The notes beneath the pieces were generated by a model that was not told where the DNA came from, did not search any database, and saw nothing but the letters and a program-made list of their open reading frames with translations. Shown here piece after piece: positions 2,820 through 26,144 of a stretch of DNA of 64,000 bases; the first letter of the stretch is position 1; each line of letters begins with the position of its first letter. A program made the translations under genes and the position numbers. Location: the NCBI RefSeq assembly GCF_023897065.1, contig NZ_JAMHIV010000016.1, positions 62,001 to 126,000 of the forward strand, written 5' to 3'. The stretch is from Crossiella sp. SN42 (GTDB taxonomy: Bacteria > Actinomycetota > Actinomycetes > Mycobacteriales > Pseudonocardiaceae).

Positions 2820-4186
2820 CATCAAGCAGGGTCGCACCAATGAGCATAGGCAAGATCGAGGCCGGACGCTTCACCATCACCGAAAAGAGCATCAAGGACA
2901 CCGACTTCTCTCAGAACAAGAGCAAAGAGTGGGGTATCGTAGAGTCCCGGCTCGAACGGTGCAAGTTCGAAAACCTGCGGGTGAGAAACTTCGTTTTCGG
3001 ATCAGGCAAGAAGCCGACTGAATACATCGACTGCAGCTTCGACGGCTCCCACATCCGGGCACTCGTCCCTGGACGCGCCCGGTTCATTCGGTGCTCGTTC
3101 CGAAATGTCCGACTGGAGAAGTGGCTCTGCAACGAGGCGGAGTTCATCGACTGCGTCTTCACCGGCACTCTACGCGAAATCAATTTCAATCGAGAACTCG
3201 ACAAGGGAGCCCGGGGCCAACTGGGCCGCAAGGAGAACGCATACTCCGGCAACAACTTCTCCGGTGCCACCCTGGAATGGGTCGCCTTCATGGGCGGGGT
3301 CGACCTGTCGGCTCAGCAACTGCCTACCGGCGAGGAATATCTGTATCTACCCGACGCGGCGCCCGTCCTAGCCGCAGCCTTCGCTGAAGTCGAAAACTGG
3401 GGTGAGGCTGACCGCAATACGGTCAGGGGCAAGCTGGAAATGGCACGCGAGGACGTGGCGCACGGCCAACATCAACTATTTCTCTGCCCCGAGGTATTCA
3501 TCGCCCGCTCCCCTGAGCAAGAGAAGGCGCTGGGTCAGCTTCGCGAGGTCCTCCTCGCGGCCAAGGCAAAGCTCGAACAACCGGCCGGGGGTTCGTCCGG
3601 GACCGAACGTCCGAATCTGGCAATCGACCGCCGTGCGGTCCACGGGCCTGGCTTCGTGTACTTCCGCGCTCGTGACCAGGGCGATGCGGGACGCTCGCTG
3701 GGCCTGCCCGGTGGGCCGCTCACCGAGGACTCCACGGGGACTCCGGCATTCGACGGCGTGATCGCGCGCGCGGTCGAGCCGTTCCTGGTCCTGGGTGCGC
3801 TGGTGGCAGCCACCCGGGACGTCCGATGGCATCCCGAATTGTCACCGATCGTCAGTGTGTGGCCGCCTGAGGAGACCGAACCTCGTTCGATCGAGGAAGC
3901 CATGACACTGCCCGATGGCTCTCCCTGGAAGGACCCGGGATCCGTCTTGCAGGAACTGGGCACCGCAACCAGGGACAGCCTCGCCGCGGTCCCGGAGGAT
4001 CGACTGGCACAGGTCGCGGCGCAGTGGTCGCGAGCTGAGGCGTTCGCCCACTTCCAGGATGTGAACCCGGAGAGCATGCTGTCGGTCGTTCGCGATTTGG
4101 TGGGTCTCGCCCAGCGGGCACGAGCCGCCGACGAGCAGCTCTACTGCTGGATTGGCACCCCGCCGGCATCAGAGGCCAGCCACTGA
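2816..4186 (+). CDS. Probable immunity protein, pentapeptide-like N-terminus
   Basis: 456 aa from the ATG at 2816, whose ATGA overlaps the toxin stop; an in-frame ATG at 2840 is a second possible start. Residues about 40-140 hold loose pentapeptide-like steps (CKFENLRV, DCSFDGSHI, RCSFRNV, DCVFTGT) typical of a right-handed beta-helix. The C-terminal 280 residues have no motif I recognise and show no signal peptide or membrane segment, so the protein is expected in the cytosol. Immunity to the upstream toxin is inferred from the overlap and position alone. It may be a fusion of two small immunity domains. GC is lower than in the chromosomal core genes. Confidence 0.65.
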   Translation: MTSSRVAPMSIGKIEAGRFTITEKSIKDTDFSQNKSKEWGIVESRLERCKFENLRVRNFVFGSGKKPTEYIDCSFDGSHIRALVPGRARFIRCSFRNVRLEKWLCNEAEFIDCVFTGTLREINFNRELDKGARGQLGRKENAYSGNNFSGATLEWVAFMGGVDLSAQQLPTGEEYLYLPDAAPVLAAAFAEVENWGEADRNTVRGKLEMAREDVAHGQHQLFLCPEVFIARSPEQEKALGQLREVLLAAKAKLEQPAGGSSGTERPNLAIDRRAVHGPGFVYFRARDQGDAGRSLGLPGGPLTEDSTGTPAFDGVIARAVEPFLVLGALVAATRDVRWHPELSPIVSVWPPEETEPRSIEEAMTLPDGSPWKDPGSVLQELGTATRDSLAAVPEDRLAQVAAQWSRAEAFAHFQDVNPESMLSVVRDLVGLAQRARAADEQLYCWIGTPPASEASH

Positions 4187-4350: not shown

Positions 4351-5062
4351 CCTGGCCGGTTTCGGGGGCGAGGGCCAGGTCCACCGCGGCTTCGGCATGC
4401 GCAACAGCCGTGTCGATGATGGGTACCGGACTGTCCTCGGGTTTGACGAGCAGGCCGAACTCGGTGCACCCGAGGACAACGACCTCCGCGCCGCGCTCGA
4501 CCAGATCCGCGATGGCGGCCTTGAACTTGTTCCGGGTCGCGGCGAGGAAGACGCCCTTGGCGAGTTCCTGGCAGAGCGCGTTGTGCACGTTCTCCTGGTG
4601 TTCGCCCTCGGCGACCAACACCTTGAGGTCATAGCGTTCGCGCAGGCGGTTCACGAAGTAGTCGCCGGTCATCGTGTAGCGGCTGCCGAGCAGTCCCACG
4701 GTGGTGAACCCGCGTTCCCTGACCTGCCGGGCGGCCGGATCGACGATGTGGAGGAACGGGAGGTCGACCGCGCTTTCGATGCGGTCGGCGGCGGCGTGCA
4801 CGGTGTTGCAGGCGATCAGGAAGAAGTCCGCGCCCGCGGCCTTCAGCTTGTTGCCCTGCTCGGCCAGGAGGTCGCCGACCACGTCCCAGCGACCCTCGCG
4901 CTGGTTCCGGTCGACTTCCTCGAAGTCGGTCTGCGCCAGGACAAGACGCGCGCTGTGCAGCCCGTCGTCACCCAGGCGCTGAGAGGTCATTTCGTTGATG
5001 AGCCGGTAATAGGCGATCGAACTGGGCCAGGCGACACCGCCGACTATTCCGATGGTCTTCAT
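4325..5062 (-). CDS. Aspartate/glutamate racemase family protein
   Basis: 245 aa. The Asp/Glu racemase fold is clear: N-terminal MKTIGIVGG, first catalytic Cys in ACNTVH (Cys85) and second in LGCTEFGLL (Cys199). Family members interconvert L- and D-amino acids by a two-base thiol mechanism without PLP. The length is normal for a standalone aspartate racemase. The substrate is not determined. The last 10 or so residues come from a junction with a duplicated fragment and may not be original. No operon partners: the toxin cassette converges from the left and a LysR remnant lies upstream. Confidence 0.88.
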   Translation of the reverse strand: MKTIGIVGGVAWPSSIAYYRLINEMTSQRLGDDGLHSARLVLAQTDFEEVDRNQREGRWDVVGDLLAEQGNKLKAAGADFFLIACNTVHAAADRIESAVDLPFLHIVDPAARQVRERGFTTVGLLGSRYTMTGDYFVNRLRERYDLKVLVAEGEHQENVHNALCQELAKGVFLAATRNKFKAAIADLVERGAEVVVLGCTEFGLLVKPEDSPVPIIDTAVAHAEAAVDLALAPETGQGHVVGPRR

Positions 5063-5164
5063 TTCCCCACGCTAGAACCGCCTTTTCCCTACGTCCACTG
5101 CGCTGCCTCGCCCGTCCACGCAGCTCGGCGTCCCACTCGTGCAGGGCGACGGACGGGGAGTGCG

Positions 5165-5356
5165 ACCTACGCCTTCGAGAGCCAGGTGGCCGGTGCCGTC
5201 GAACTGCCGATCGCGGACCAGGGCGCGTCCCGCACGATCAGCCTGCTGTGGCGGAAAGACCCGTCGGCGGCGGCGACCCTGGACCTCCGGCGCCACATCA
5301 TCGATACGGCGTCTCAGCTCTTCGCGGCGGTCAGCGGCGGCCGGTGGCCAGGATGA
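5165..5356 (+). pseudogene. LysR-type regulator, C-terminal remnant
   Basis: The plus-strand frame reads as the end of a LysR substrate-binding domain: VAGAVELPIADQ, then ISLLWRKDPSAA, then a terminal helix (HIIDTASQLF). No N-terminal HTH is present upstream, where the racemase gene diverges. The frame runs into the 3' end of the convergent HNH-like gene before stopping. I interpret it as a truncated regulator that may once have been divergent from the racemase. Confidence 0.42.
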
Positions 5357-5771
5357 CGAGGAACTGGCCGCCGCCCGGCTCGATGCTGGCGGTCACCGGC
5401 AGTCCTGGCACCAGCCGGGAGAACCGGTCCACCAGCCAGTCCGCCGCCTCCTGGGCGTCCTGCTTGGTCGGGCACCGGGCCACCATCTCGCGGCCGCCCT
5501 TGCGCTCCAGCCTTGTGGCGACAGTGATCAGCGGGGCGGGTTCGACCACGTGCAGGCGGTCCGGCCAGGCGATGACCACCTTGACCGCGCCCTTGCGGGT
5601 GTTGCAGCCGCGGTGCGCGAGCCGCTCGGCGATCTTGGCCTTGCGGTCGGCGGTCCGGCTGTCGACGCTGGGCCCCCTCGAGTCGTTCACCGACATGTCG
5701 GGGTCGACCGGTTCATCGCAGACCCAGCAACGCCAGCCGTCGCGCTCGGCCACATCATCGAGGAGACTCAC
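5331..5771 (-). CDS. HNH-like zinc-binding protein, degenerate
   Basis: 146 aa. The N-terminal half resembles an HNH nuclease zinc core: CWVC near residue 15 and HRGCNTRKGA near residue 53, matching the second CxxC-like half and the final H..CN..K. The central Asp-His expected between them is replaced by a Ser/Asp-rich stretch (NDSRGPSVDSRT), so nuclease activity is doubtful. The C-terminal half (about 75-146) is an unrecognised alpha/beta segment. It has a decayed partial copy at 4266-4350. Function unknown. Confidence 0.6.
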   Translation of the reverse strand: MSLLDDVAERDGWRCWVCDEPVDPDMSVNDSRGPSVDSRTADRKAKIAERLAHRGCNTRKGAVKVVIAWPDRLHVVEPAPLITVATRLERKGGREMVARCPTKQDAQEAADWLVDRFSRLVPGLPVTASIEPGGGQFLVILATGRR

Positions 5772-5840
5772 CCGAGCAAACTAGCCTGCCGCCAACGGCA
5801 TCCACAAAGGACAGAGAAGGTCATCGGTACCTCGGCGGCA

Positions 5841-5958
5841 CATGCCAGAAGCCCCGGGGCACGTTGTGGACCGTGTCACCAGGGCTTCTGGGGCTATCTC
5901 AACCGAGTCGAGCTGAGGGGATTCGAACCCCTGACCCCGCACTGCCAGCGTAGGTGAA
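5841..5958. repeat. Left att-like repeat: tRNA-Ala 3' half plus hairpin
   Basis: This is an imperfect direct copy of 26002-26121. It contains a hairpin with arms 5845-5854 and 5882-5891, then GGGGCTATCTCAACCGAGT. Next comes the T-arm, variable loop and anticodon 3' side of tRNA-Ala(GGC), ending at the anticodon loop (CTGCCAG). The 5' half of a tRNA is absent, so this is not a functional tRNA. Identity stopping at the anticodon loop is typical of attachment sites left by tyrosine-recombinase integration. It marks the left end of the island. Confidence 0.75.
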
Positions 5959-6027
5959 TCAAGCATCTGACCAGCAAGTGCCGTTGCATACCGTTCAACG
6001 GCGTTCGACTCGGTTCCTGCGAAACCA

Positions 6028-6048
6028 CTGCTCCAGGTCTGCTCCAGG
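6028..6048. repeat. Tandem decamer pair, possible integrase arm site
   Basis: Two direct copies of CTGCTCCAGG lie at 6028-6037 and 6039-6048, an 11-bp period. The same pair (CTGCTCCAGA twice, same spacing) is at 25913-25933, just inside the other island end. On an excised circle the pairs would flank the joined att core, as arm-type integrase sites do. That role is inferred. Confidence 0.4.
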
Positions 6049-6089
6049 CTGGCCCGCGCACCACAGTTCTAAGGGCCAGGCCGGCCGTC

Positions 6090-7607
6090 TTACCCGGCCG
6101 GGACGGGCAGCGGCATGCCCGGCACCCGCGCGTCGACGGGGGGCTTGCCGTGCACCAGGAACCGCTCCACCGCGCGGTCCAGGCGGGCATTGCCGTCGGC
6201 GTAGAGCCCGTGGTCGCCTTCGCCGGTGACGGTGATCATCCGCGCGCCGCGGAAATTCTGCCGCGCCTTGATCGCGTTCTCGATGCCGGTGGCCCCGTCG
6301 TGCTCGGAGTGCACGATCAGCACCGGCGGCACGCCCTTGCCGGTCAGCTGCTGGAGCGGGATTTGCCCCTGCGGGCGCTGCCAGAACACGCAGGCCTGGC
6401 CGGTCAGCCAGCTGGCGCCGAGGATGAGGTGGCCGCGGTCGAAGTTCTCCTGGGAGCGGCGGATGATGGACTCGCGGTCGCCGGTCCACGGGGTGTCGTT
6501 GCACAGCGTGGACCACAGGGTGGCGGTGAAGAAGTCGGCCGCCAGCGCCTGGCTCGGTGCGGGCGTGCTCCGGCCCTGGGTGGCCGCCCGGGCCGACACC
6601 AGCAGATCGGCCAGCAGCGGGAAGTTCTTCTTCTTGTACAGGTAGTGCACCACCGCGCCGTCCAGCGCGAGCTGGTTCACCAGCCCACCGCCGATCTCCA
6701 CCGGTTTGCGAGCCAGTTCGGCGCGCAGGTCCTCATAGACGCGCCGGGCCTGTTCGCCGGTCGCGCCGAACCGGTACCTGGACTCGTACTGGGCGATCCA
6801 GGGCAGGAAGTCCTGCCGCCAGCGGCGTTCGAAGCTGGCTGCCTGGCTGTCCCGGAAGGTCTGCCAGTCGCCGGTGAACTCCACCACGGAGTCCACCACG
6901 AACCGCCCGGTGCGCCGGGGGAACTGCTGCGCGTAGTGCGGGCCCAGCCAGGTCCCGCCGGAGATTCCGTAGTAGTTGATCTTCTGTCGGCCAAGCAGCA
7001 CCCGCAGCAGGTCCATGTCGCGGATGGTCTGCGCGGTGTCGATGTACTTGCCGAGCTCGCCGGAATGTCGTTGGCAGGCCTGGGCGAACTCGCGCACCGA
7101 GTCCGCGATTGCCGCCAGGTTCGCCGGCGAGCGGTCCCGCCCGTCCCGGCCCGCGCCGGGCACCACACCACCGCAGCTGATGTTGTCGCTCTTGCCGGTG
7201 CCGCGCGGGTCCATGCCGATGATCTCCTGGTGCGCGCGCAGCTCGGTGCCCGGCTGCCAGCGGCCCGGCCCACCCGGTCCACCCGGGTTGGTGAACAGCG
7301 AGGCGGTGGCCTTGCCGGTGGCGGGCAACCGGCTGATCGCGATGGTCAGCTCCGGCTCGTCGCTCGGCCAGGCCCAGTCCCGAGGGGTGCGGAAGGTGGC
7401 GCACTCCAGGCCGGTGATGTCCAGGTCATCAGGCAGCGGCGCGCTCATGTCATCCATCGTGCAGGGCCGCCAACTCAAGCTCTGCCCGGCGAAGCGGTCC
7501 GGGATTCCGGTGCTGTTCAACGGAATCCCGGCGGCCAGTGCCGGGGTCGTGGTGGCGACTCCGGCCAGCAGCACTGGCAGCACGAGGAGGAGGCGTTTTC
7601 GGCTCAT
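6090..7607 (-). CDS. Secreted S33-family peptidase (tripeptidyl aminopeptidase-like)
   Basis: 505 aa. Signal peptide about residues 1-26 (MSRKR, hydrophobic core, ALAA). The alpha/beta-hydrolase core has TNPGGPGGPG as the oxyanion region, GMDPRG, and nucleophile elbow GISGGTW with Ser216. Asp437 (HSEHDG) and His466 (GEGDHG) complete the triad. The TAP C-terminal domain is present. The SlpD/SlpE/TAP family releases N-terminal tripeptides from secreted proteins outside the cell. The usual elbow is GxSYG; here Gly replaces Tyr. A second, diverged family member lies at 8605-10083 in the same orientation. Monocistronic in appearance. Confidence 0.9.
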   Translation of the reverse strand: MSRKRLLLVLPVLLAGVATTTPALAAGIPLNSTGIPDRFAGQSLSWRPCTMDDMSAPLPDDLDITGLECATFRTPRDWAWPSDEPELTIAISRLPATGKATASLFTNPGGPGGPGRWQPGTELRAHQEIIGMDPRGTGKSDNISCGGVVPGAGRDGRDRSPANLAAIADSVREFAQACQRHSGELGKYIDTAQTIRDMDLLRVLLGRQKINYYGISGGTWLGPHYAQQFPRRTGRFVVDSVVEFTGDWQTFRDSQAASFERRWRQDFLPWIAQYESRYRFGATGEQARRVYEDLRAELARKPVEIGGGLVNQLALDGAVVHYLYKKKNFPLLADLLVSARAATQGRSTPAPSQALAADFFTATLWSTLCNDTPWTGDRESIIRRSQENFDRGHLILGASWLTGQACVFWQRPQGQIPLQQLTGKGVPPVLIVHSEHDGATGIENAIKARQNFRGARMITVTGEGDHGLYADGNARLDRAVERFLVHGKPPVDARVPGMPLPVPAG

Positions 7608-12653: not shown

Positions 12654-15600
12654 GTGGAACTCAGCACGCCCGAGGACTTCGCCCGAACCCTCGATGCACT
12701 ACGCCGAAAATCCGGGAAATCCTACCGTCAGTTGGCGGAAGAATCTGGTTTAGCTTTCACCACGATCTCCGGCTACTGCAAGGGGCGTCACCTGCCACAG
12801 CTCTCGGTCGGGCGCGAATTCTCCGGCCTCCTGACCGCAATGGGCGTCTCGGAGCAGGATGCCTGGTTCGACGCGCTCCCCAGGCTCAGGACACGCGCGA
12901 CTCCGGGCTCAAATCCGTACCGAGGGTTACGTGCGTTCCAGCCAGAAGACGCGGCGGTGTTCTTCGGGCGCGCGGACCTCACCGCGCGGGTGTTGGCCAC
13001 GGTGACCGACGAAGGGCGGCTGGTCGTAGTCGGGCCATCGGGCTCGGGCAAGTCGTCGCTCCTGCGCGCCGGCCTGATCCCGGCGCTCGACCAGGCCGCG
13101 CTGATCACGCCGGGCAATACGCCGCTGCGGGAGCTGGCGGACGTCGCCGACGAAGTGGTGCTTGTAGTGGATCAGTTCGAGGAGCTGTTCACCATGTGCC
13201 CGGACGAACGTGACCGCATCGACTTCCTCGATGCACTGCTTGATCGGTCCGCTCCGCTCGTGCTCGGCCTGCGCGCGGACTTCTACGAACAGGCGCTGCG
13301 GTACCCGCGGCTCGCCCGACTGGTACAGCAAGCGCAGGTGGTCGTGGAGCCAATGACCGAGGTCCAGCTGCGTGACGCCATCGTGGAACCCGCGCGCTGC
13401 GCTGGGTTCGAGTTGCAGGACGGGTTGGTCGAACTGCTTCTACGGGACACAGAGCCGGGAGCGTTGCCACTGTTGTCGCACACGCTGCAGACGATCGTGC
13501 AGTTGTGCCAAGAGGACAACCCCCAGGCCACGTCACTTGGCGTGTCGCACTACCAGGCCGCGGGCGGCGTCCGCGGGGCGATCGCCAAGTCGGCCGCTCT
13601 CGCCTTTGACTCATTGAGCACCACGCAGAAGACCGTGGCACGAAACCTGTTCCTGCGATTGGTGAAAGTCGACGACAGTGCTGTGGACACCCGTCGGCGC
13701 GTCACCTTCGATGAGCTGTTTGACGGCCGTACCGACGAGGAGGTCGACGACCTCACCGAGGTGTTCGACCTATTCGTCACTCATCGACTGCTCACCGCCG
13801 ACAAGCACACAGTGGAGATCAGCCACGAGGCGTTGCTGACCGCGTGGCCGCTGCTACAGAGCTGGCTGGCAAACGACAGGATCGGCCGCCACGTCCACGG
13901 CAGGCTGACCGCTGCGGCCCGTGTCTGGCGAGACAACGGGTACCCGGCCGAGGAGCTCTACCGGGGCGGGACGCTGGAGACCGCGCTGGACTGGGCGGCC
14001 ACACCTGGCCCGCACGAAGCGCTCAACCCGTTGGAACATGAGTTCCTCGCTGCCTCAGTTGACCAGCGCACCGCGGAGGATTGTGCCGACCGGCGACGGG
14101 TTCGGCGCGGTTACCAGGCGATCATCGTCCTGGTCGTGCTGGTACTGGTCGCGGTAGCCGCAGGGCTGTACGCGCGGCAGGTCGCATCCAGTGCCGACCG
14201 TAACGAAAGGCTCGCGCTGTCCCGGCAGACCGCAACGAAAGCAGATCGGCTGCGTGACAAGGACCCTGCACTGGCCGCGCAACTCGCCCTGGCGTCCTAC
14301 CGGGTCGCGCCGACCCCAGAAGCGCGGGCGGCGCTGCTCGACTCGTCTGCGCGCCCGATGCCCACTCGCGCCCGTGCCCGCAGCGGAACCACACAGGTGA
14401 TGGCCACAGCAGGTCATCTGCTGGCCTCGGGCACCGACACCGGGCATGTCGAGATCTCTACCGTCGATGGCGCATCGGTGGCAGTCCTTGCCACGGGCCG
14501 TCCCGTGGCGGCGATCGCGCTCACTTCCGATGGTGCTCATGTCGCGGCAGGCGATCAGACGGGCTCCGTGTTGGTGTGGCGGGTCGGCACCCTCACTCCC
14601 ATCGGCACGTTCGCGGCTGGTCCCGCGCGGCTGTTCTCCCTCGCGTTCAGCCCGGACGGTCGCCAGCTAGCCGCAGCCAGCGGTGACTCAGCCGTGCGTC
14701 TGTGGACGATCGGGCAGGACACGGCTCCAACTGTGCTCACCGGGCCTAGCCAAGCCGTGAAGAGCGTCGTGTTCACCCCGGACGGACGCACAGTCGCGGC
14801 GGGCAGTGACGACGCCACCGTCCACGTGTGGCCCGTGGCCACTCCAGGCCGATCGCTCGTCCTACGCGGTCCCACCAGCAGGGTCTTCACCGTCGCGATC
14901 TCACCTGACGGCCGCACTCTCGCCGCGGGCACAGCCGCCGAGCACCTCGTCTACACCTGGGACCTCACGGCCCCCGGCAGGCCGCCTACACAGTTGGCAG
15001 GACCGGCAAGTTGGATCAACATCGTGGCCTTCAGTCCGGACGGACACACCCTGGCCGCGGGCAGTTCCGACACCCTGCTGTGGCAGTGGGATCTGCGGAC
15101 ACGCCAACCGCTCGGCACGCTCCCGCACCCGGTTCCGCTGACCGGCGTCGCTTACCGCGACAACCGCACACTGCTCGGCCTCACCCCGGATGGCGTCATC
15201 CGGACCTGGCCCTTGCCGGGCCCGGCGCTGGTCGGCAGCACCAACCAGATCTTCTCCGCCTCGTTCGACGCCTCAGGTGGCCGGCTGCTCGTCGGGGCGG
15301 GCGACGGCAGCCTGCGCCTGTGGGACGTCACCGCCCACACCCGGCCCACAGCTACGGTTGCCTTGGCAGAAAAGGAAACCGCAGCAGCCAACCTTGCCGG
15401 CGCGTCGGTGCTCACCCCCGATGGCACAGTGGCGATCGCCGGGTCGAAGGACGGCAGAGTCTCCTTCTGGAACCTCCGTGCCCGGACGTCCGTGCACGTT
15501 TCGGTTGCCAAGACAACGATTCAGGCCCTCGTCCTCAGCCCTGATGGGAAGACGTTGGCAGCGTCGAGCGGTGACGACGGCATGGTGCACCTGCTCGACA

Positions 15601-16262
15601 TCACCAACCCTGACCGCCCCGTCGTCACCATGGCGCTGCCCCGCCTCACCCCGCCCGCTGCGGCGGGCGGGGTGAGGTTCAGCCCAAACGGGCGGCTCCT
15701 CGCCGTCGCAGGCGGCGACGCCAAGGGCTACTTGTGGGATATCACCGACCGGGCACGGCCACGTCTGCTGGAAACGGTCACCGGGTTCACTGGCGCGGTT
15801 TATGCGACCGCGTTCAGCTCCGACGGCAGGCTGCTCGCCTTCGGCGGGGCCGACTACTCGGTCCGGCTGGTCGACCTCTCCCGACCCGAGAATCCGGTCA
15901 CACTGGACGCCCCGCTGATCGGCCCGGTCGGCGAGGTCTACGAACTTGCGTTCCAGCCGGGTAGCAGGGTCCTCGCGGTCGGCAGCATCGACCGAACTGT
16001 CTGGCTGTGGGACCTGGGCAACCCGCGCGAGCCGGACTGGAGAGCTACCCTTACCGCTGCCGAGGGTGGTCTGTTCACTGTCGCGTTCAGCCCCGACGGC
16101 CGCACTCTCGCAGGCGGTGGCCGCGACCGGGCAGTCCGACTGTGGAACACCGACCCCAGCACGGTCTCCGCCCGGATCTGCGCGACGGCGGGCGATCCGA
16201 TCACCCCGGCGGAGTGGGCGCAGTTCATCCCTGACGAGCCCTACGCCCCGCCCTGCCGCTGA
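12654..16262 (+). CDS. HTH-nSTAND-WD40 repeat signalling protein
   Basis: 1202 aa, GTG start preceded by AAGGAG. Domains: XRE-like HTH at about 5-70 (SYRQLAEESGLAFTTISGY); a linker ending NPYRGLRAFQPEDAAVFFGR, typical for nSTAND1; P-loop GPSGSGKS at 127-134; Walker B VVLVVDQFEEL near 170; helical winged region to about 470; one transmembrane helix at about 487-509; then WD40 repeats from about 545 to the end (repeated FSPDGR...AAGS...LWD). Such STAND ATPases are thought to oligomerise on sensing a trigger, with the WD40 propeller as sensor or scaffold and the HTH facing the cytosol. TTA codons at 12750 and 12927 suggest dependence on a rare Leu-tRNA. The function is inferred, possibly conflict or stress signalling. 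Confidence 0.9.
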   Translation: MELSTPEDFARTLDALRRKSGKSYRQLAEESGLAFTTISGYCKGRHLPQLSVGREFSGLLTAMGVSEQDAWFDALPRLRTRATPGSNPYRGLRAFQPEDAAVFFGRADLTARVLATVTDEGRLVVVGPSGSGKSSLLRAGLIPALDQAALITPGNTPLRELADVADEVVLVVDQFEELFTMCPDERDRIDFLDALLDRSAPLVLGLRADFYEQALRYPRLARLVQQAQVVVEPMTEVQLRDAIVEPARCAGFELQDGLVELLLRDTEPGALPLLSHTLQTIVQLCQEDNPQATSLGVSHYQAAGGVRGAIAKSAALAFDSLSTTQKTVARNLFLRLVKVDDSAVDTRRRVTFDELFDGRTDEEVDDLTEVFDLFVTHRLLTADKHTVEISHEALLTAWPLLQSWLANDRIGRHVHGRLTAAARVWRDNGYPAEELYRGGTLETALDWAATPGPHEALNPLEHEFLAASVDQRTAEDCADRRRVRRGYQAIIVLVVLVLVAVAAGLYARQVASSADRNERLALSRQTATKADRLRDKDPALAAQLALASYRVAPTPEARAALLDSSARPMPTRARARSGTTQVMATAGHLLASGTDTGHVEISTVDGASVAVLATGRPVAAIALTSDGAHVAAGDQTGSVLVWRVGTLTPIGTFAAGPARLFSLAFSPDGRQLAAASGDSAVRLWTIGQDTAPTVLTGPSQAVKSVVFTPDGRTVAAGSDDATVHVWPVATPGRSLVLRGPTSRVFTVAISPDGRTLAAGTAAEHLVYTWDLTAPGRPPTQLAGPASWINIVAFSPDGHTLAAGSSDTLLWQWDLRTRQPLGTLPHPVPLTGVAYRDNRTLLGLTPDGVIRTWPLPGPALVGSTNQIFSASFDASGGRLLVGAGDGSLRLWDVTAHTRPTATVALAEKETAAANLAGASVLTPDGTVAIAGSKDGRVSFWNLRARTSVHVSVAKTTIQALVLSPDGKTLAASSGDDGMVHLLDITNPDRPVVTMALPRLTPPAAAGGVRFSPNGRLLAVAGGDAKGYLWDITDRARPRLLETVTGFTGAVYATAFSSDGRLLAFGGADYSVRLVDLSRPENPVTLDAPLIGPVGEVYELAFQPGSRVLAVGSIDRTVWLWDLGNPREPDWRATLTAAEGGLFTVAFSPDGRTLAGGGRDRAVRLWNTDPSTVSARICATAGDPITPAEWAQFIPDEPYAPPCR

Positions 16263-16389: not shown

Positions 16390-16653
16390 ATGCTCATCAA
16401 GAACGGGACCAAGGTGACACTCGTGATCGCCGCGGTGACGATGACCGGATCATCCGGCTCGGGAGCCACCGCGCTGGCAGACAAAGTCGACAACGGTAAC
16501 TCGTACAACGATTGCCCGGACGGCTTTACCCTCGCCTCGGCCAACATCGTCAAGGATGGCGCCGTCATCGGCATCGGGGAGATGCGGTGGCCATGGGCGT
16601 GCTCAGGCGAGTGGACCAAGGTCTGCGCCGGTGCACATGAGCTGCTGGGGTAG
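16390..16653 (+). CDS. Small secreted Cys-containing protein
   Basis: 87 aa, ATG preceded by a strong AGGAGGAAC site. A signal peptide with a Thr/Ser-rich c-region ends near ATALA (residue 30). The mature part is about 57 aa with three Cys (DCPDG, WACSG, KVCAG) and several Trp. No family recognised. It lies 128 bp after the WD40 gene and upstream of a small-peptide/ThiF cassette, so it may belong to that cassette, but this is positional only. Confidence 0.65.
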   Translation: MLIKNGTKVTLVIAAVTMTGSSGSGATALADKVDNGNSYNDCPDGFTLASANIVKDGAVIGIGEMRWPWACSGEWTKVCAGAHELLG

Positions 16654-16909
16654 TCGTCCACCAGCGTGTGCAGAACATGGAGAACCTCTCCTGCTCGTCC
16701 CACGGCCAGCAGGACCTGGAACCGGTGGTGCTGGTGCTGGACATCTCACAGCTCGGACGCCATCTCAAGCCCGTGATCGTGCGCCAAACCGCGCCCGACA
16801 TCGGTCAAAACAAGCCCTCGCCACAGGTCCCTGGGTGGTTCATCCAGGGTCCCGGTGCGTCCTCACAAAGGTCGGCACATGCCGATCATCAACAATGGGG
16901 AGGACGCCC

Positions 16910-17026
16910 ATGAACCCACCCTCGGTGCGCGAGTCACTGCCAGGTGAACCCCACCCGCCGTGGTCGTGTCTGACGGTGCGCCACCTTCTCCGTCGCGGAA
17001 TACGGAAAGGGGGTGCGATCACATGA
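16910..17026 (+). CDS. Small ORF coupled to the 23-aa peptide
   Basis: 38 aa from the ATG at 16910 with GGGAGGACG just upstream. It begins MNPPSVRESLPGEP and ends IRKGGAIT. Its TGA (17024-17026) overlaps the ATG at 17023 of the next small ORF as ATGA, the classic coupling arrangement. No domain recognised. It could be a leader for translational coupling or a second peptide; it could also be a chance ORF. Confidence 0.35.
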   Translation: MNPPSVRESLPGEPHPPWSCLTVRHLLRRGIRKGGAIT

Positions 17027-17094
17027 TCATCCAGTTCATCCCGACCGAGCGTGAAATGACCTTCAGCAACGACAACGAGGGCTCCAGCGGCTGA
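17023..17094 (+). CDS. Candidate 23-aa precursor peptide
   Basis: A 23-aa peptide starting MIIQFIPTERE and ending NDNEGSSG, with GAAAGGGGG upstream of the ATG. It sits 17 bp before an E1-like ThiF enzyme that carries a peptide-recognition-type N-terminus. E1-like enzymes adenylate C-terminal carboxylates, often of Gly, and MccB acts on a very short ribosomal peptide, so this peptide ending in Gly is a natural substrate candidate. Coding status rests on ribosome site, overlap with the preceding ORF and position; it is too short for statistics. Confidence 0.45.
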   Translation: MIIQFIPTEREMTFSNDNEGSSG

Positions 17095-17111
17095 CCGGAA
17101 GGAGGAAGGCC

Positions 17112-18218
17112 ATGCAACGTCCGCGAATCAAACCCGAACACCTGCCTTTCCGCCGCGGCGAGGACCTGGTGCAGATCGGCGGCTCCATCTACGGAATCGC
17201 CAACCTCATCCCGGACCCGGACGGGGCCGTGTGGGCGCTGCTGGCCCGCCTCGACGGCACCCGCACCGTGGACCAGGTGGTCACCGACCTGGTCCGCCTC
17301 TACCCCGAGCATCCGGCCGGGACTGTCCACACGGCGATCGAGGCCCTGGCCCGCGCCGGCCACCTCGAAGACGCCGCCGAACCACCCCCTGCGGAGCTCA
17401 GCGATGCCGAACAGGAACGCTACGGCCGCAGCCACGCCCTGTGGCGGTGGATCGATCTGACTCCCCGCTCCAGCAGCTGGAACGCTCAGCTGGCGTTGCA
17501 CCAGGCGCGGGTTGTCGTGGTCGGCCTCGGCGGGGTCGGCAGTGCTGCGGCCCTGGCGCTGACCGTCTCCGGGGTGGGGCAGGTGCACTGCGTGGAACCG
17601 GACGTGGTGGAGCTGTCCAACCTCAACCGCCAGATCCTGTTCACCGAAGATGACCTGGGCCAGCCCAAGGTGGAGGCGGCAGTGCGGCGCCTGCGGGAGC
17701 ACAACTCGGCGATCGAGGTCACCGGGCAGCGGCACGTTATCGACGGCCCGCAGGTGCTGCGCCAGCTGGCTATCGGGTGTCAGGTGCTGTTGATGGCCGC
17801 CGACACCCCGCGTGAGATCCGCTCCTGGACCAACCAGGCGTGCCTGGACACCGGCACCGCCTGGGTGCACGGGGGCTACCACGGTCCCCGAGTCAACATC
17901 GGCCTTTACCAGCCGGGAACTGGTCCGTGTCACGATTGCACCGGTCTCGCTGTGGCCGAGCGGCGAGCCGCGCAACCACAGCGCACGTTGTGGCCGGGGA
18001 CGCCCTCGACCACGGCGGCGCACGCCGCAAGCGCAATCTCCGCCGGGTATGCCGGGCTGATGGCAGCGCACGCGGTGATGAGCCTGATAACCGGGGCGCC
18101 GGCGTTGCAGACCAACTGCGAGTACGGGTTCAGCCTCGTCGCCTTAGACGACTGTTTCACCCTGAGCCTGTCTGCGCCTCGGCCGGACTGCCCGGCCTGC
18201 GGCCGGGCCGCCGCCTAA
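17112..18218 (+). CDS. RRE/PqqD-like plus E1-like (ThiF/MccB) adenylyltransferase
   Basis: 368 aa; ATG preceded by GGAAGGAGGAAGG. Residues about 1-90 resemble the PqqD/RRE winged-helix fold (LDGTRTVDQVVTDL then AIEALARAGHLED), which binds leader peptides. Residues about 130-350 are an E1/ThiF Rossmann domain: VVVVGLGGVGS for ATP, E.D.VELSNLNRQILF, and a structural zinc site from CHDC and the C-terminal CPAC. The combination is that of MccB-type or RiPP-cyclising E1 enzymes, which adenylate a peptide carboxylate. Codon 345 is TTA (18144), suggesting developmental control. The short ORF at 17023 is the best substrate candidate. No transporter or other modifying enzyme is adjacent, so the product is unknown. 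Confidence 0.85.
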   Translation: MQRPRIKPEHLPFRRGEDLVQIGGSIYGIANLIPDPDGAVWALLARLDGTRTVDQVVTDLVRLYPEHPAGTVHTAIEALARAGHLEDAAEPPPAELSDAEQERYGRSHALWRWIDLTPRSSSWNAQLALHQARVVVVGLGGVGSAAALALTVSGVGQVHCVEPDVVELSNLNRQILFTEDDLGQPKVEAAVRRLREHNSAIEVTGQRHVIDGPQVLRQLAIGCQVLLMAADTPREIRSWTNQACLDTGTAWVHGGYHGPRVNIGLYQPGTGPCHDCTGLAVAERRAAQPQRTLWPGTPSTTAAHAASAISAGYAGLMAAHAVMSLITGAPALQTNCEYGFSLVALDDCFTLSLSAPRPDCPACGRAAA

Positions 18219-18220
18219 TT

Positions 18221-18257
18221 GTCGGGTGGGGCGTGCACCAGGCACTCCCCACCCGAC
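18221..18257. terminator. Bidirectional hairpin terminator
   Basis: An 11-bp perfect stem (GTCGGGTGGGG at 18221-18231 with CCCCACCCGAC at 18247-18257) between the convergent ThiF-like and NB-ARC genes. Confidence 0.7.
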
Positions 18258-18264
18258 CGTGCGG

Positions 18265-20397
18265 TCAGTTCTGCTCGGCCAGTTCGGCCGCGCGTCGGTG
18301 CAACTGCTCGGCGCGGGACTCGTCGAGCTCGGTCAGAATCACCGCGGCCTCCCCCAGCGCCCGGACCGCCTCCTCCTGCCGGCCATGCCTGATGAGCGAG
18401 GCGGCCAGGGTTTCCAGGATCATGGCCTGGCTGGATTCGGTCCCAGCCAGTTCGCGGTACTGGGCGAGTCCGCGGTGGCAGAGCTCGATCGCGGTGTCGT
18501 GGTCCCCGCGCCCCTGGTGGGCGACCGCGATGTCGTGCAGGGCGTAAGCGATGCCGTTGGGGGCACCGACCTCGCGGCGCAGCGCCAGCTCGGTCTCGGC
18601 GTGCGCCAGGGCGGTGTCAAAGTCGCCTTCCTCGGCGGCGATCTGGCTCAGGTTGCAGACGACCACCGCCTCGGCCGAGGCCTTGCCCGCGGTCTGGGCC
18701 AGGGGAAGCGCGGCTGTGTAGTACGCGCGAGCCTCGGGCAGGCGTTCCTGGGAGCGGCGAATCAACCCAAGGGCGCACAAGGCTTCACGGCGGGCGGCAG
18801 GATCCCCGAGTTCTTCGGCCACGGCCATAGATGCGGTGAAGTCAGCCTCGGCGGCTGGGAGATCCCCCAGCATGCGGCAGGTGCCGCCGTGGCGCAGCAA
18901 CAAAAACGCCTCAGCGACCCGGTCACCGCAGGCCCGCGCGGAGGCGAGACCAGCTTCCTCTGCTTCAAGGCGGTTCCGCCACAGCGTCCGCGGTCCCAGG
19001 GTGAGAAACCGCGCCGCGCTGGCGATAAGCACCACCACCCCGTGTTGTCCGTGCCCGGCGGCCAGCCGCTGAACAGCCCACAGGGTGGCGTGCTCAGTCC
19101 GCAGCCAGGCCACTGCTTCCTCCCGGCTGGTCACCGGCACCGAGACGGTCATCTCACCAAGCTCGTTACACAGGGACTCAGTGCCGGGAAATAGCTGGCG
19201 ATCGGCCTCCATGGCAGTACGGGCGTACCAGGTCAGCATCGGCATCAGCGCCCCACGCCGCTGCCCTGGTTGCTCCTCACACTCGGCGCGGTGTGCGGCG
19301 TAGGCGTGCAGTAGGTCGTGGAAGCGGTAACGGCGCCGCCCTGCCGGCTCGATCAAGTGGTACGCGGCCAATGCCTCCACCAGCCGTCTCGCCTCCCGCA
19401 ACTCGACCCCGGCAACTGCGGCGGCCGCGTGCACCCCGAACTCCACTCCTGGATGCAGGCCCAGCAGCCGGAACATCCGCGCCTGCGCCGGAGGCAACCG
19501 GGAATAGGACCAGTCGAAGACAGTGCTCACCGAGCTTGCCTGGTCCCCCGGCACGGTCAACGCGCCAAGGCCTTGCCAGCCTTCGCGGATCTCTTCCACC
19601 ACGTCGGCGACCTCCAGGTACTGGTGGGCGGCGATGCGGGTGGCGGCGACCCGCAGTGCCAGCGGCAAGTGCGCGCACACCCGGATCAGCTCGGTCACCG
19701 CTTCGGCTTCGGCTGCGGCCCGCTGCGCGCCGATGACCGTGGCCACCAATTCGTGGGCCTCAGCGGTGGTGAACAGGTTCAAGACGAGCGGGGTGGCGGT
19801 TTCGATCACCGCCAGCCCGATGAGGTTCGCGCGGCTGGTCACCAGCACCAGCGACCCCAGGGATCCTGGGAGCAGGGGGCGGACCTGCTCGGCATTGCCA
19901 GCGTTGTCCAAGACCACGAGCACACGCCGCTCGGCCAGCAGCGAGCGATACACCGCGCACTGCTGATCCAGATCTGCTGGGATCCGCTCCTCGGACACCC
20001 CGAACGCCATCAGGAATCCGGTCAGCACCAGGTGAGGCGCCAGTGGTGCGCTGGGGCCGTAACCGCGAAGGTTGGCGAACAGCGTGCCGTCGGGGAAGTG
20101 ATGTTGCACCCGGTGTGCCCACTGCACCGCCAAGGTGGTCTTGCCGACCCCCGCGGTCCCATCCAGTGTCACGATCACCGTCGCCGGGGTAACGCTCATG
20201 GTGTCCGCTGTCGGCAACAGCGCGTCCAGCATCGCTAAGTGGTGGGCGCGACCGGCGAATCCCCGGACTGTCGGGGGCAATTGCCGCGGTACCAGTGGGG
20301 CCTCTTTCGGCGGGGTCAGCACCACTTGGCCGATGGTGTGCGCCTGCACGACCGGGCCCGTGACGGTTCCGCTGACCGTATTGCCGACCTCGACCAT
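18265..20397 (-). CDS. NB-ARC / TPR STAND protein, AfsR-like without SARP domain
   Basis: 710 aa. It begins MVEVGNTVSGTVTGPVVQA, the short beta-rich GN-x-G-x-V-x-G-P-V-x-Q head found on many actinobacterial STAND proteins. The NB-ARC ATPase follows: Walker A DGTAGVGKTTLA near 80-90, RRVLVVLDNA as Walker B near 160, SLVLVTSR sensor, and HLPLALRV (GxP-like) near 245. From about 430 to the end are TPR-type helical pairs. It lacks the N-terminal OmpR-like SARP domain of AfsR, so DNA binding is not expected. The role is likely signal-dependent oligomerisation. It converges on the ThiF-like gene, so co-regulation with it is not shown. Confidence 0.88.
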   Translation of the reverse strand: MVEVGNTVSGTVTGPVVQAHTIGQVVLTPPKEAPLVPRQLPPTVRGFAGRAHHLAMLDALLPTADTMSVTPATVIVTLDGTAGVGKTTLAVQWAHRVQHHFPDGTLFANLRGYGPSAPLAPHLVLTGFLMAFGVSEERIPADLDQQCAVYRSLLAERRVLVVLDNAGNAEQVRPLLPGSLGSLVLVTSRANLIGLAVIETATPLVLNLFTTAEAHELVATVIGAQRAAAEAEAVTELIRVCAHLPLALRVAATRIAAHQYLEVADVVEEIREGWQGLGALTVPGDQASSVSTVFDWSYSRLPPAQARMFRLLGLHPGVEFGVHAAAAVAGVELREARRLVEALAAYHLIEPAGRRRYRFHDLLHAYAAHRAECEEQPGQRRGALMPMLTWYARTAMEADRQLFPGTESLCNELGEMTVSVPVTSREEAVAWLRTEHATLWAVQRLAAGHGQHGVVVLIASAARFLTLGPRTLWRNRLEAEEAGLASARACGDRVAEAFLLLRHGGTCRMLGDLPAAEADFTASMAVAEELGDPAARREALCALGLIRRSQERLPEARAYYTAALPLAQTAGKASAEAVVVCNLSQIAAEEGDFDTALAHAETELALRREVGAPNGIAYALHDIAVAHQGRGDHDTAIELCHRGLAQYRELAGTESSQAMILETLAASLIRHGRQEEAVRALGEAAVILTELDESRAEQLHRRAAELAEQN

Positions 20398-26001: not shown

Positions 26002-26121
26002 AATGCCGGAAGCCCCGGTCAACAGGTTGTGGACCCTGTCGACCCGGGCTTCCGGGGCTATCTCAACCGAGTGGAGCTGAGGGGATTCGAACCCCTGACC
26101 CCCACACTGCCAGTGTGGTGC
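26002..26121. repeat. Right att-like repeat (overlaps tRNA-Ala)
   Basis: Direct copy of 5841-5958. Arms CCGGAAGCCC (26006-26015) and GGGCTTCCGG (26046-26055) form the tRNA terminator hairpin; compared with the left copy, the changed stem base pair is compensated on both sides. Identity continues through GGGGCTATCTCAACCGAGT and the tRNA 3' half to the anticodon loop. Confidence 0.75.
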
Positions 26122-26144
26122 GCTACCAACTGCGCTACAGCCCC
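26072..26144 (-). tRNA. tRNA-Ala (anticodon GGC)
   Basis: 73 nt. The acceptor stem GGGGCTG pairs with CAGCTCC, discriminator A, CCA not encoded. D-arm AGCGCAGTTGGTAGCGC, anticodon loop CTGGCAG giving GGC, T-arm AGGGGTTCGAATCCCCT. It reads GCC/GCU alanine codons. The complete gene survives at the right end of the island, as expected when an element integrates at the 3' half and restores the tRNA. Confidence 0.95.

What the first reader, a model, noticed from the sequence alone, without database searches (positions are those of the whole stretch)
16390..18257. Candidate small-peptide modification cassette with RRE-E1 enzyme
A secreted 87-aa protein, a 38-aa ORF and a 23-aa ORF ending in Gly (ATGA-coupled) precede a PqqD/RRE-like plus ThiF/MccB-type enzyme with ATP loop GLGGVGS and two CxxC zinc pairs. 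E1 enzymes activate C-terminal carboxylates and MccB works on a heptapeptide, so a very short ribosomal substrate is plausible. No transporter, protease or known RiPP partner is adjacent, so if real it would be a minimal or new system.
Basis: partly seen in the sequence, partly recalled or inferred. Interest (0 to 1): 0.75.

Follow-up and report, generated by a model that had tools for sequence, protein, structure and literature searches.

The report
Tiny-peptide E1 cassette with NLR partner
A soil bacterium and its relatives carry a small gene set in which a ubiquitin-E1-like enzyme probably closes a roughly 20-amino-acid peptide into a ring, next to a gene for an immune-receptor-like sensor protein, which suggests an unstudied peptide signalling or defence system.

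Summary
A 19-25-aa ORF (pepA) lies directly before the RRE-E1 gene in 40 of 41 loci of one supported E1 clade. PepA has a beta-like leader, one Ser/Cys/Thr, then 3-8 residues ending in Ser, Gly, Ala, Asn or Thr in 40 of 40. The 38-aa ORF is possibly conserved; the 87-aa 'secreted' ORF is not. The enzyme matches MccB and PaaA over its whole length. Reciprocally, 24 of the 27 best NB-ARC-TPR matches (the window's included) lie beside such an E1. Best explanation: the E1 adenylates pepA's C-terminus and closes a lactone or thiolactone on the Ser/Cys/Thr; the neighbouring receptor reads the product. RRE-ThiF RiPP enzymes are known, and modified peptides beside AP-ATPase-TPR genes are described with other enzymes (PMC7159879, passages). 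I found no paper that joins the two. New variant of a known kind.

The parts
17023..17094 (+). pepA, 23-aa predicted precursor: leader MIIQFIPTEREMTF, candidate nucleophile S15, tail NDNEGSSG
   Evidence: 40 of 41 clade loci have a counterpart directly upstream of E1, 38 by rule plus L008 and L072; motif is position-specific; codon-like substitutions; 40 of 40 end in S/G/A/N/T
17112..18218 (+). RRE-E1 (ThiF-like adenylyltransferase), 368 aa; ATP loop 138-144, R173, K186, D231, Cys4 site 273/276/360/363
   Evidence: PF00899 2e-41; MccB 5e-23 and PaaA 5e-23 by phmmer, PaaA aligned from residue 4; AlphaFold2 model vs MccB Z 28.6 over residues 2-365; residues invariant in 11 orthologues
16910..17026 (+). 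pepB, 38-aa possible second conserved peptide, Cys at residue 20; stop overlaps the pepA start (ATGA)
   Evidence: look-alikes found by eye in 16 of 41 loci, the window's included; a regex written from them finds 7 in the expected slot vs 3 elsewhere in 242,104 bases. Against: tblastn of the window's 38 aa finds no relative below E 0.4 in the fetched loci and the codon test is weak. Role unknown
18265..20397 (-). NB-ARC-TPR protein, 710 aa (AP-ATPase/NLR-like), predicted receptor of the modified peptide
   Evidence: NB-ARC 3.5e-12, TPR_12 3e-24; NB-ARC-TPR gene downstream in 33 of 41 clade loci; 24 of 27 best matches in 297 genomes, itself included, lie beside an E1
20305..20394 (-). N-terminal amyloid-signalling-like motif of the NB-ARC-TPR protein (GNTVSGTVTGPVVQAHTIGQVVL)
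   Evidence: pattern found near the N-terminus in 25 of 33 linked NB-ARC-TPR proteins, and at the C-terminus of a 146-aa ORF beside another motif-bearing gene in L065; unlinked paralogues carry similar motifs (by eye); BASS motifs described in PMC7889193 (passages read), likeness by eye and recall
12654..16262 (+). nSTAND1-WD40 protein, 1202 aa; upstream neighbour that may be the regulator of the cassette (inferred)
   Evidence: nSTAND1 1e-103, WD40 1e-63; N-terminus looks like a helix-turn-helix by eye only; nSTAND1-WD40 genes also upstream in L066, L071 and L075, other sensor types elsewhere

Best explanation
A ribosomal peptide cassette coupled to a receptor gene. Shown by comparison: pepA, RRE-E1 and an NB-ARC-TPR (or HTH-DUF5753) gene form one conserved unit. 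Inferred mechanism: the RRE of the E1 binds the beta-strand-like leader of pepA (typically M/V-I-E-F-I-E); the E1 domain adenylates pepA's C-terminal carboxylate, whose last residue is always small; the one conserved Ser/Cys/Thr, 3-8 residues upstream of the end, attacks it and closes a macrolactone or thiolactone. Inferred function: the ring-bearing peptide is the ligand or signal read by the neighbouring NB-ARC-TPR protein, which then oligomerises through its N-terminal amyloid-type motif, and perhaps by the sensor gene upstream (SARP-NB-ARC-TPR, nSTAND1-WD40 or HTH-DUF5753). My estimates for each step taken alone: pepA is the E1 substrate 0.9; C-terminal carboxylate activated 0.75; lactone/thiolactone 0.5; product sensed by the neighbour 0.5. 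The confidence below is for the core (E1 ring-closing on pepA through its C-terminus, coupled to the neighbour), not for every detail at once.
For: pepA before E1 in 40 of 41 clade loci: 38 by an automatic rule, plus L008 and L072, where it is the in-frame end of a longer ORF. Motif in the slot in 31 loci and in 2 other ORFs of the 3-kb surroundings. C-terminal residue S14 G12 A7 N6 T1, 40 of 40, against 327 of 744 for ORFs over 100 aa that I called in these and more distant loci. Position of the conserved residue S18/C21/T1 (three rows corrected by eye) with at least 10 changes on the E1 tree, as expected if hydroxyl and thiol are interchangeable acyl acceptors. L052 carries a second pepA with the same features (MMIEFDEVDWQVTCNGSGTS). 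Fold and sequence of MccB and PaaA, both including the N-terminal peptide-binding domain. Precedent: GrcB makes a Glu-Cys thiolactone (PMC12250964, passages) and IndF links the C-terminal Ile carboxylate to Trp (PMC12150305, parts 1-2 of 3). Receptor coupling: 33 NB-ARC-TPR + 7 HTH-DUF5753 of 41 loci; the HTH-DUF5753 loci are one clade at SH-aLRT 99; reciprocal test 24 of 27; 16 stretches around other NB-ARC-TPR paralogues show no E1 and no shared neighbour by eye. AP-ATPase-TPR genes accompany other modified-peptide systems (PMC7159879, passages; NCBIfam HaaT 9e-87 and FxSxx_TPR 2e-23, both under cut-off).
Against: No biochemical evidence. Apart from the E1 and regulator families, no gene family occurs in more than 5 of the loci, so no peptidase or transporter is shared clade-wide (families in 4-5 loci were mostly not annotated); how a signal would be trimmed or leave the cell is unknown. 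7 of 18 distant E1 loci (28-42% identity) do have peptidase-like HExxH neighbours. The ring would vary (4-9 residues). L049 has Thr at the conserved position; L074 has neither pepA nor receptor gene; L012's NB-ARC-TPR protein is only 30% identical and lacks the motif. E1s of another family at 48-49% identity (L119, L120) fall outside the clade and show no upstream pepA. Adjacency shows linkage, not ligand binding: related NB-ARC-TPR genes are very common (24-205 first-look candidates per matched genome, only 3 scored each), the 537-bit cut of the reciprocal test was set after seeing the list, most of the next ten matches below it are not beside an E1, and unlinked paralogues carry similar N-terminal motifs. 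No effector with the same motif was called next to the window's gene. The model's pLDDT is 77, with loops below 50.
Confidence: 0.5

Rival explanations
1. The E1 makes a RiPP antibiotic or other secreted product; the SARP, NB-ARC-TPR and HTH-DUF5753 neighbours are ordinary cluster-situated regulators of its production, not receptors of the peptide.
For: SARP and AfsR-like proteins are classic antibiotic regulators (recalled; listing and starts of abstracts seen); the NB-ARC-TPR protein matches AfsR at 4e-105, under cut-off; 16 of 22 scanned upstream neighbours carry BTAD (19 of the 22 belong to the clade).
Against: The 31 scanned downstream NB-ARC-TPR proteins show no BTAD and 25 of 33 start with an amyloid-type motif instead; no gene family other than E1 and regulators is shared clade-wide.
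Confidence: 0.25
2. MccB-like reaction: the C-terminal carboxylate is converted into a nucleotide adduct (phosphoramidate), with no ring.
For: MccB is among the best structural and sequence matches over the full length; 6 of 40 pepA end in Asn, the residue that MccB uses.
Against: 34 of 40 do not end in Asn, and the conserved Ser/Cys/Thr would have no role.
Confidence: 0.1
3. PaaA- or GrcB-like reaction: a Glu/Asp side chain, not the C-terminus, is activated and crosslinked.
For: PaaA is the solved relative aligned from residue 4 by sequence; many pepA have acidic residues near the conserved Ser/Cys.
Against: No acidic position is invariant in the 40 listed peptides (by eye), whereas the last residue is restricted.
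Confidence: 0.1
4. Ubiquitin-like tagging: the E1 activates pepA and the peptide is attached to proteins as a modifier.
For: E1 fold and small C-terminal residue; MoeB, ThiF and eukaryotic E1 matches.
Against: pepA is far too short for a beta-grasp domain; no E2/E3 gene was recognised in the window's neighbourhood; the N-terminal domain matches the peptide-binding domain of MccB/PaaA; the conserved Ser/Cys/Thr is unexplained.
Confidence: 0.05
5. pepA is a chance ORF and the E1 acts on something else.
For: Very short ORF; many copies need GTG or TTG starts; L008 and L072 have no start codon at the usual place; L074 has none.
Against: 40 of 41 loci, position-specific motif, codon-structured changes, restricted last residue.
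Confidence: 0.03

Closest known systems
Microcin C maturase MccB
   Same: N-terminal peptide-binding domain plus E1 domain; acts on a very short ribosomal peptide at its C-terminus; alignable over residues 2-365
   Different: pepA does not end in Asn in 34 of 40; it has a leader-like N-terminus and a conserved Ser/Cys/Thr; no exporter recognised as shared
Pantocin A maturase PaaA
   Same: Aligned by sequence from residue 4, so RRE and E1 parts both match; Z 23.1 over 314 residues
   Different: No Glu-Glu-Asn core (motif recalled) in pepA; no invariant acidic residue
GrcB, EnfB and IndF (ThiF-like RiPP enzymes; PMC12250964 passages, PMC12150305 parts 1-2)
   Same: RRE-ThiF enzymes that close rings on short precursors, IndF through the C-terminal carboxylate
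   Different: GrcB and IndF are described there from streptococci, with radical-SAM or peptidase/transporter partners (EnfB's context not read); here Actinobacteria with an NB-ARC-TPR partner and, by inference, a Ser/Cys/Thr acceptor
Peptide-processing systems with AP-ATPase-TPR (FxSxx-COOH and relatives; PMC7159879, passages read)
   Same: A small modified-peptide gene set consistently next to an AP-ATPase with C-terminal TPRs, in Actinobacteria
   Different: There a zincin peptidase, for FxSxx with radical SAM/SPASM; here an RRE-E1. ThiF is not mentioned in that paper (0 occurrences)
Bacterial amyloid-signalling NLRs (BASS; PMC7889193, passages read)
   Same: NB-ARC-TPR protein with a short N-terminal G-x-V-x-G-x-VVQA-type motif (likeness by eye and recall)
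   Different: No adjacent effector with the same motif called in the window; the neighbour is a peptide-modifying enzyme

Membership tests
RRE-ThiF RiPP maturases | ThiF/E1 domain with ATP loop, N-R-Q loop, Lys and Cys4 site | tested here: met
   PF00899 2e-41; loop glycines, R173, K186, D231 and the four Cys invariant in 11 orthologues
RRE-ThiF RiPP maturases | N-terminal RRE/peptide-clamp domain | tested here: met
   PaaA aligned from residue 4; MccB Z 28.6 over 2-365; predicted strands within 4-34 and helices within 39-81. Pfam PaaA-like_N and PqqD hits are below cut-off
RRE-ThiF RiPP maturases | Conserved precursor gene next to the enzyme | tested here: met
   40 of 41 clade loci
RRE-ThiF RiPP maturases | ATP-dependent modification of the precursor | not testable with these tools
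   needs the enzyme and peptide
Microcin C (MccB) system | Precursor ending in Asn | tested here: not met
   6 of 40 end in Asn; the window's ends in Gly
Pantocin A (PaaA) system | Core Glu-Glu-Asn (recalled) | tested here: not met
   absent from the 40 listed peptides (by eye)
FxSxx-COOH peptide-processing systems | Peptide ending FxSxx | tested here: not met
   only L012 (FSSGT) of 40 peptides fits, by eye
FxSxx-COOH peptide-processing systems | Zincin peptidase and radical SAM/SPASM genes | tested here: inconclusive
   no gene family besides E1 and regulators is shared by more than 5 loci, but not every neighbour was scanned
FxSxx-COOH peptide-processing systems | AP-ATPase with C-terminal TPRs in the neighbourhood | tested here: met
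   33 of 41 loci; NCBIfam FxSxx_TPR 2e-23 and HaaT 9e-87 for the window's protein, both below cut-off
BASS amyloid-signalling NLR pairs | Short N-terminal amyloid-type motif on an NLR | tested here: inconclusive
   own pattern matches 25 of 33 linked proteins; not compared with the published BASS models
BASS amyloid-signalling NLR pairs | Adjacent effector with the same motif at its C-terminus | tested here: inconclusive
   none called next to the window's gene; own genome has 8 motif matches at E<=10, its own included, partners not traced

The most novel reading that the evidence does not exclude
The E1-made ring peptide never leaves the cell: it is an intracellular, genetically encoded second messenger whose reader is the NB-ARC-TPR protein next door. 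The E1 converts a cue (for example infection or ATP state) into a peptide (thio)lactone, the NLR-like protein binds it through its TPRs and seeds an amyloid-type signalosome. The absence of a shared peptidase or transporter in this clade, where some distant E1s have peptidase-like neighbours, would be the trace of a change from secreted RiPP to internal signal.
Probability: 0.2. Interest if true: 0.9.

Novelty: new variant of a known kind. Interest (0 to 1): 0.66.

Why it matters
Ligands of bacterial NLR-like proteins are mostly unknown (my general knowledge). Here the genome offers a candidate ligand, its maker and its receptor in about 3.5 kb, in dozens of natural versions, with the receptor type exchanged once while peptide and enzyme stayed. 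That makes the question 'do modified peptides switch on NB-ARC-TPR proteins?' directly testable. It would also add a (thio)lactone-closing E1 group acting on 19-25-aa precursors that routine gene callers are likely to miss.

Tried and rejected
87-aa secreted protein as part of the cassette: rejected, not conserved.

GSSG end as a signature: rejected, only small last residues are shared.

First table of upstream ORFs read those genome-search loci whose match was on minus (L022, L023, L026, L029, L035, L036, L038, L042, L043) on the wrong strand and seemed to show loci without peptide; corrected by orienting with tblastn. The script anchored three peptides (L048, L063, L068) on the wrong Ser; counts here (S18 C21 T1; 3-8 residues after; 25 F and 7 Y before) are corrected by eye. 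L049's Thr was assigned by its place in an equally long peptide (L045). Starts of pepA were chosen by eye at the conserved V/M/L/I; the ORFs by rule are 19-25 aa, and in L073 and L076 the listed peptide begins inside the ORF.

pepB: I first took it for firmly conserved; tblastn finds no relative of the window's copy and the codon test is weak (113/106/126 of 378; 409/437/501 of 900 and 74/48/77 of 190), so it is called possible.

Other NB-ARC-TPR paralogues might have had other peptide enzymes: 16 stretches showed no common neighbour by eye. In class-level relatives L119, L120 and L123-L133 no upstream pepA was seen by eye; their precursor, if any, lies elsewhere. Plasmid collection: 4 of 72,556 records at E<=1e-25, best 48.6% identity in Streptomyces sp. 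NBC_00464, not examined further. NCBIfam scan of six typed peptides: no family. PADLOC: partial E1-E2, TPR and HEAT-ARM hits only.

Papers: ten searches, of open-licence PMC texts only; those aimed at RRE-ThiF beside NB-ARC/SARP/DUF5753 were 35, 76 and 100, and long lists were seen only in part (for example 25 of 32). None listed describes the pairing. Also looked into, by passages: PMC12261475, PMC12710340, PMC12257519; PMC9062424 held none of the terms asked.

Full report
WHAT IS THERE. The window is from a 9.72-Mb genome. A genome labelled 'same genus' (G108) has a contig of the same length as a Crossiella record that carries the same match, so Crossiella is likely. The ORFs of the finding are present. 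The 368-aa enzyme is a ThiF/E1 protein with an N-terminal RRE-like part.

RELATIVES. Ten named loci (55-65% identity; Saccharothrix, Amycolatopsis, Pseudonocardia, Actinophytocola, Crossiella) and 297 genomes of the same family were searched. Two of the matches (G194, G114) report one in-frame TGA. The 41 form one clade against 11 more distant E1s (SH-aLRT 99; quick tree, 16 of 49 inner branches open). The genome labelled same species, G055, has none (best match 5e-14). In the class, 15 of 394 genomes have a match at 1e-25 or better, two of them at 48-49%; those two (L119, L120) fall outside the clade and show no pepA upstream.

PEPTIDE A. Upstream sequence was read in three frames (33 loci) and by rule (41 loci). 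A short ORF (19-25 aa) lies directly before E1 in 38 of 41 by rule; in L008 and L072 the same sequence is the end of a longer in-frame ORF; L074 has none. Examples: window MIIQFIPTEREMTFSNDNEGSSG; L009 VIEFIEPDREPTFSNPNQQS; L060 LIEIVMVERTDAIRHVYCADNG; L071 VLDIGPVEPGLTFCPRNTQA. The start is usually M/V-I-E-F/I; the conserved Ser/Cys/Thr follows Phe (25) or Tyr (7) in 32 of 40; then come 3-8 residues. The last residue is S14, G12, A7, N6, T1, that is 40 of 40 in a set that covers 327 of 744 ORFs over 100 aa called in these and more distant loci; rows are related, so the nominal 5e-15 is not a probability. Position control: 31 loci in the slot, 2 other ORFs elsewhere. Coding control: 82/51/115 changes at codon positions 1/2/3 of 468. 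Ser/Cys/Thr changes at least 10 times on the tree.

PEPTIDE B. The 38-aa ORF has look-alikes in 16 of 41 loci (window included), found by eye, with Cys at residue 19-21; most end near the pepA start, in L061 and L072 they run into pepA in frame, and L051's frame runs on into E1. A regex gives 7 in the slot and 3 elsewhere. Against it: no tblastn relative of the window's copy and a weak codon test. Possible, role unknown.

ENZYME. phmmer: MccB 5e-23, PaaA 5e-23, the PaaA alignment starting at residue 4. AlphaFold2 from 11 sequences: pLDDT 77, pTM 0.71, ten-residue blocks from 31 to 80 at 86-95. Foldseek best: MccB, E 3e-21. VIA-align: MccB Z 28.6, rmsd 5.0 over 327 residues from 2 to 365; PaaA Z 23.1, rmsd 7.3 over 314; ThiF and MoeB tie (28.7) but only from about residue 95 on. 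So the peptide-holding half is shared with MccB and PaaA.

RECEPTOR GENE. Neighbourhoods, up to 9 kb each side, were fetched and genes called by a GC-frame rule of mine. By BLAST to representatives, 33 of 41 have an NB-ARC-TPR gene directly downstream (30 convergent; L012, L056 and L058 co-directional, L056 with one gene between; L007's is cut by the contig end), 7 an HTH-DUF5753 gene, 1 neither. Of 31 NB-ARC-TPR proteins scanned (L007 and L056 left out), 31 match TPR_12 and 29 NB-ARC; one has a phosphorylase-type domain. L012's is only 30% identical and starts differently. The 7 HTH-DUF5753 loci are one clade (99) inside the 41, most simply one replacement of the sensor. Upstream, sensor-type regulators are frequent but not constant: 22 such neighbours were scanned (19 of the clade, 3 of distant E1s) and 16 carry BTAD; nSTAND1-WD40 in the window, L066, L071, L075; HTH-DUF5753 again in the XRE sub-clade. 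Reciprocal test: of the 27 best matches to the window's NB-ARC-TPR protein (537 bits and more, itself included) in 297 genomes, 24 lie within about 3 kb of an E1 of this clade (coordinates compared by hand; at most 3 matches scored per genome; cut set after seeing the list). The exceptions are G000:C34, G139:C55 and G141:C1. Below the cut most of the next ten are not beside an E1, while some linked ones score lower (G006, G166, G219). Sixteen stretches around unlinked ones hold no E1 hit and no shared neighbour by eye. A pattern G-x-V-x-G-x-VVQA-x-I is near the N-terminus of 25 of 33 linked proteins, like the bacterial amyloid signalling sequences at NLR N-termini (PMC7889193, passages; likeness by eye and recall); unlinked paralogues have similar motifs.

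DISTANT E1s. At 28-42% identity a short peptide is still seen upstream in about 13 of 18 loci by eye, e.g. L093 MTIEVRKVESVKATGFEV, L082 VENTKKKVSVKIRKLEKLETTVVRNDG, again mostly with a Ser/Thr and a small last residue (L093 ends in Val, L080 in Arg). Seven of the 18 have HExxH proteins beside E1: membrane type in L082, L083, L091, L095; M3-like in L084, L086, L087 (types by eye; two further HExxH hits, L093 and L094, look like chance); L088 has an MFS transporter. These look like ordinary RiPP clusters; in the focal clade no gene family besides E1 and regulators is in more than 5 loci.

INTERPRETATION. Best supported: RRE binds the leader, E1 adenylates the C-terminus, Ser/Cys/Thr closes a (thio)lactone, the product is read by the neighbour. 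Homology and linkage are shown; chemistry and sensing are inferred. ThiF-like RiPP enzymes already known make a thiolactone (GrcB), phosphoramidate (MccB), bicycle (PaaA) and indolylamide through the C-terminal carboxylate (IndF) (PMC12250964, abstract and passages; PMC12150305, parts 1 and 2 of 3). Coupling of modified peptides to AP-ATPase-TPR proteins has been described for zincin/radical-SAM systems and proposed as an alarm signal (PMC7159879, passages). The pairing with an RRE-E1 was not found in the searches aimed at it nor in the listings of the other seven.

SETTING. In the matching stretch of same-species genome G055 only window 5329-5868 and 25675 onward align (about 94%), so the cassette lies in at least 20 kb that differ between strains. 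A 119-bp direct repeat (5842-5956 and 26003-26120, 87%) at its ends includes part of a tRNA-Ala gene, 26071-26144.

Noticed in passing
window 5842-5956 and 26003-26120: Direct repeat (87%) that includes part of tRNA-Ala(ggc) 26071-26144; in the matching stretch of same-species genome G055 only 5329-5868 and 25675 onward align. The cassette sits in a strain-variable stretch of at least 20 kb ending at a tRNA gene; no integrase was looked for.
   Followed up: partly
L052, 295 nt before the E1 start (oriented): A second pepA-like ORF, MMIEFDEVDWQVTCNGSGTS, in the same cassette.
   Followed up: yes
L065, oriented 3442-3883 and 4371-7086 relative to the E1 start: Next to that cassette, a 146-aa ORF and a 904-aa ORF share a G-x-V-x-G-N-x-VQA-type motif at C- and N-terminus: looks like an amyloid-signalling effector/NLR pair.
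   Followed up: no
own genome, contig C34, about 271635-273487 (L137): A 67%-identical partial copy of the NB-ARC-TPR gene whose N-terminal motif matches in a separate short open frame, with no E1 hit in the fetched 19 kb: perhaps a decayed copy.
   Followed up: partly
L082:7870-9081 (minus strand): 404-aa protein overlapping a distant E1 gene: membrane protein with HExxH and a PqqD-like N-terminus by eye, no Pfam or NCBIfam family at the thresholds used.
   Followed up: partly
L121, L122, L135, L081, L082 upstream of E1: A second group of short E1-linked peptides with a K-I-R-K-L-E-K-L-E-T-T-like leader, some in other actinobacterial families.
   Followed up: no
L045, L046, L096 upstream of E1: Closely related E1s whose pepA leaders differ (MVIKFIVVTVDR vs MIITFIAVTQDW), useful natural variants for testing leader recognition.
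   Followed up: no
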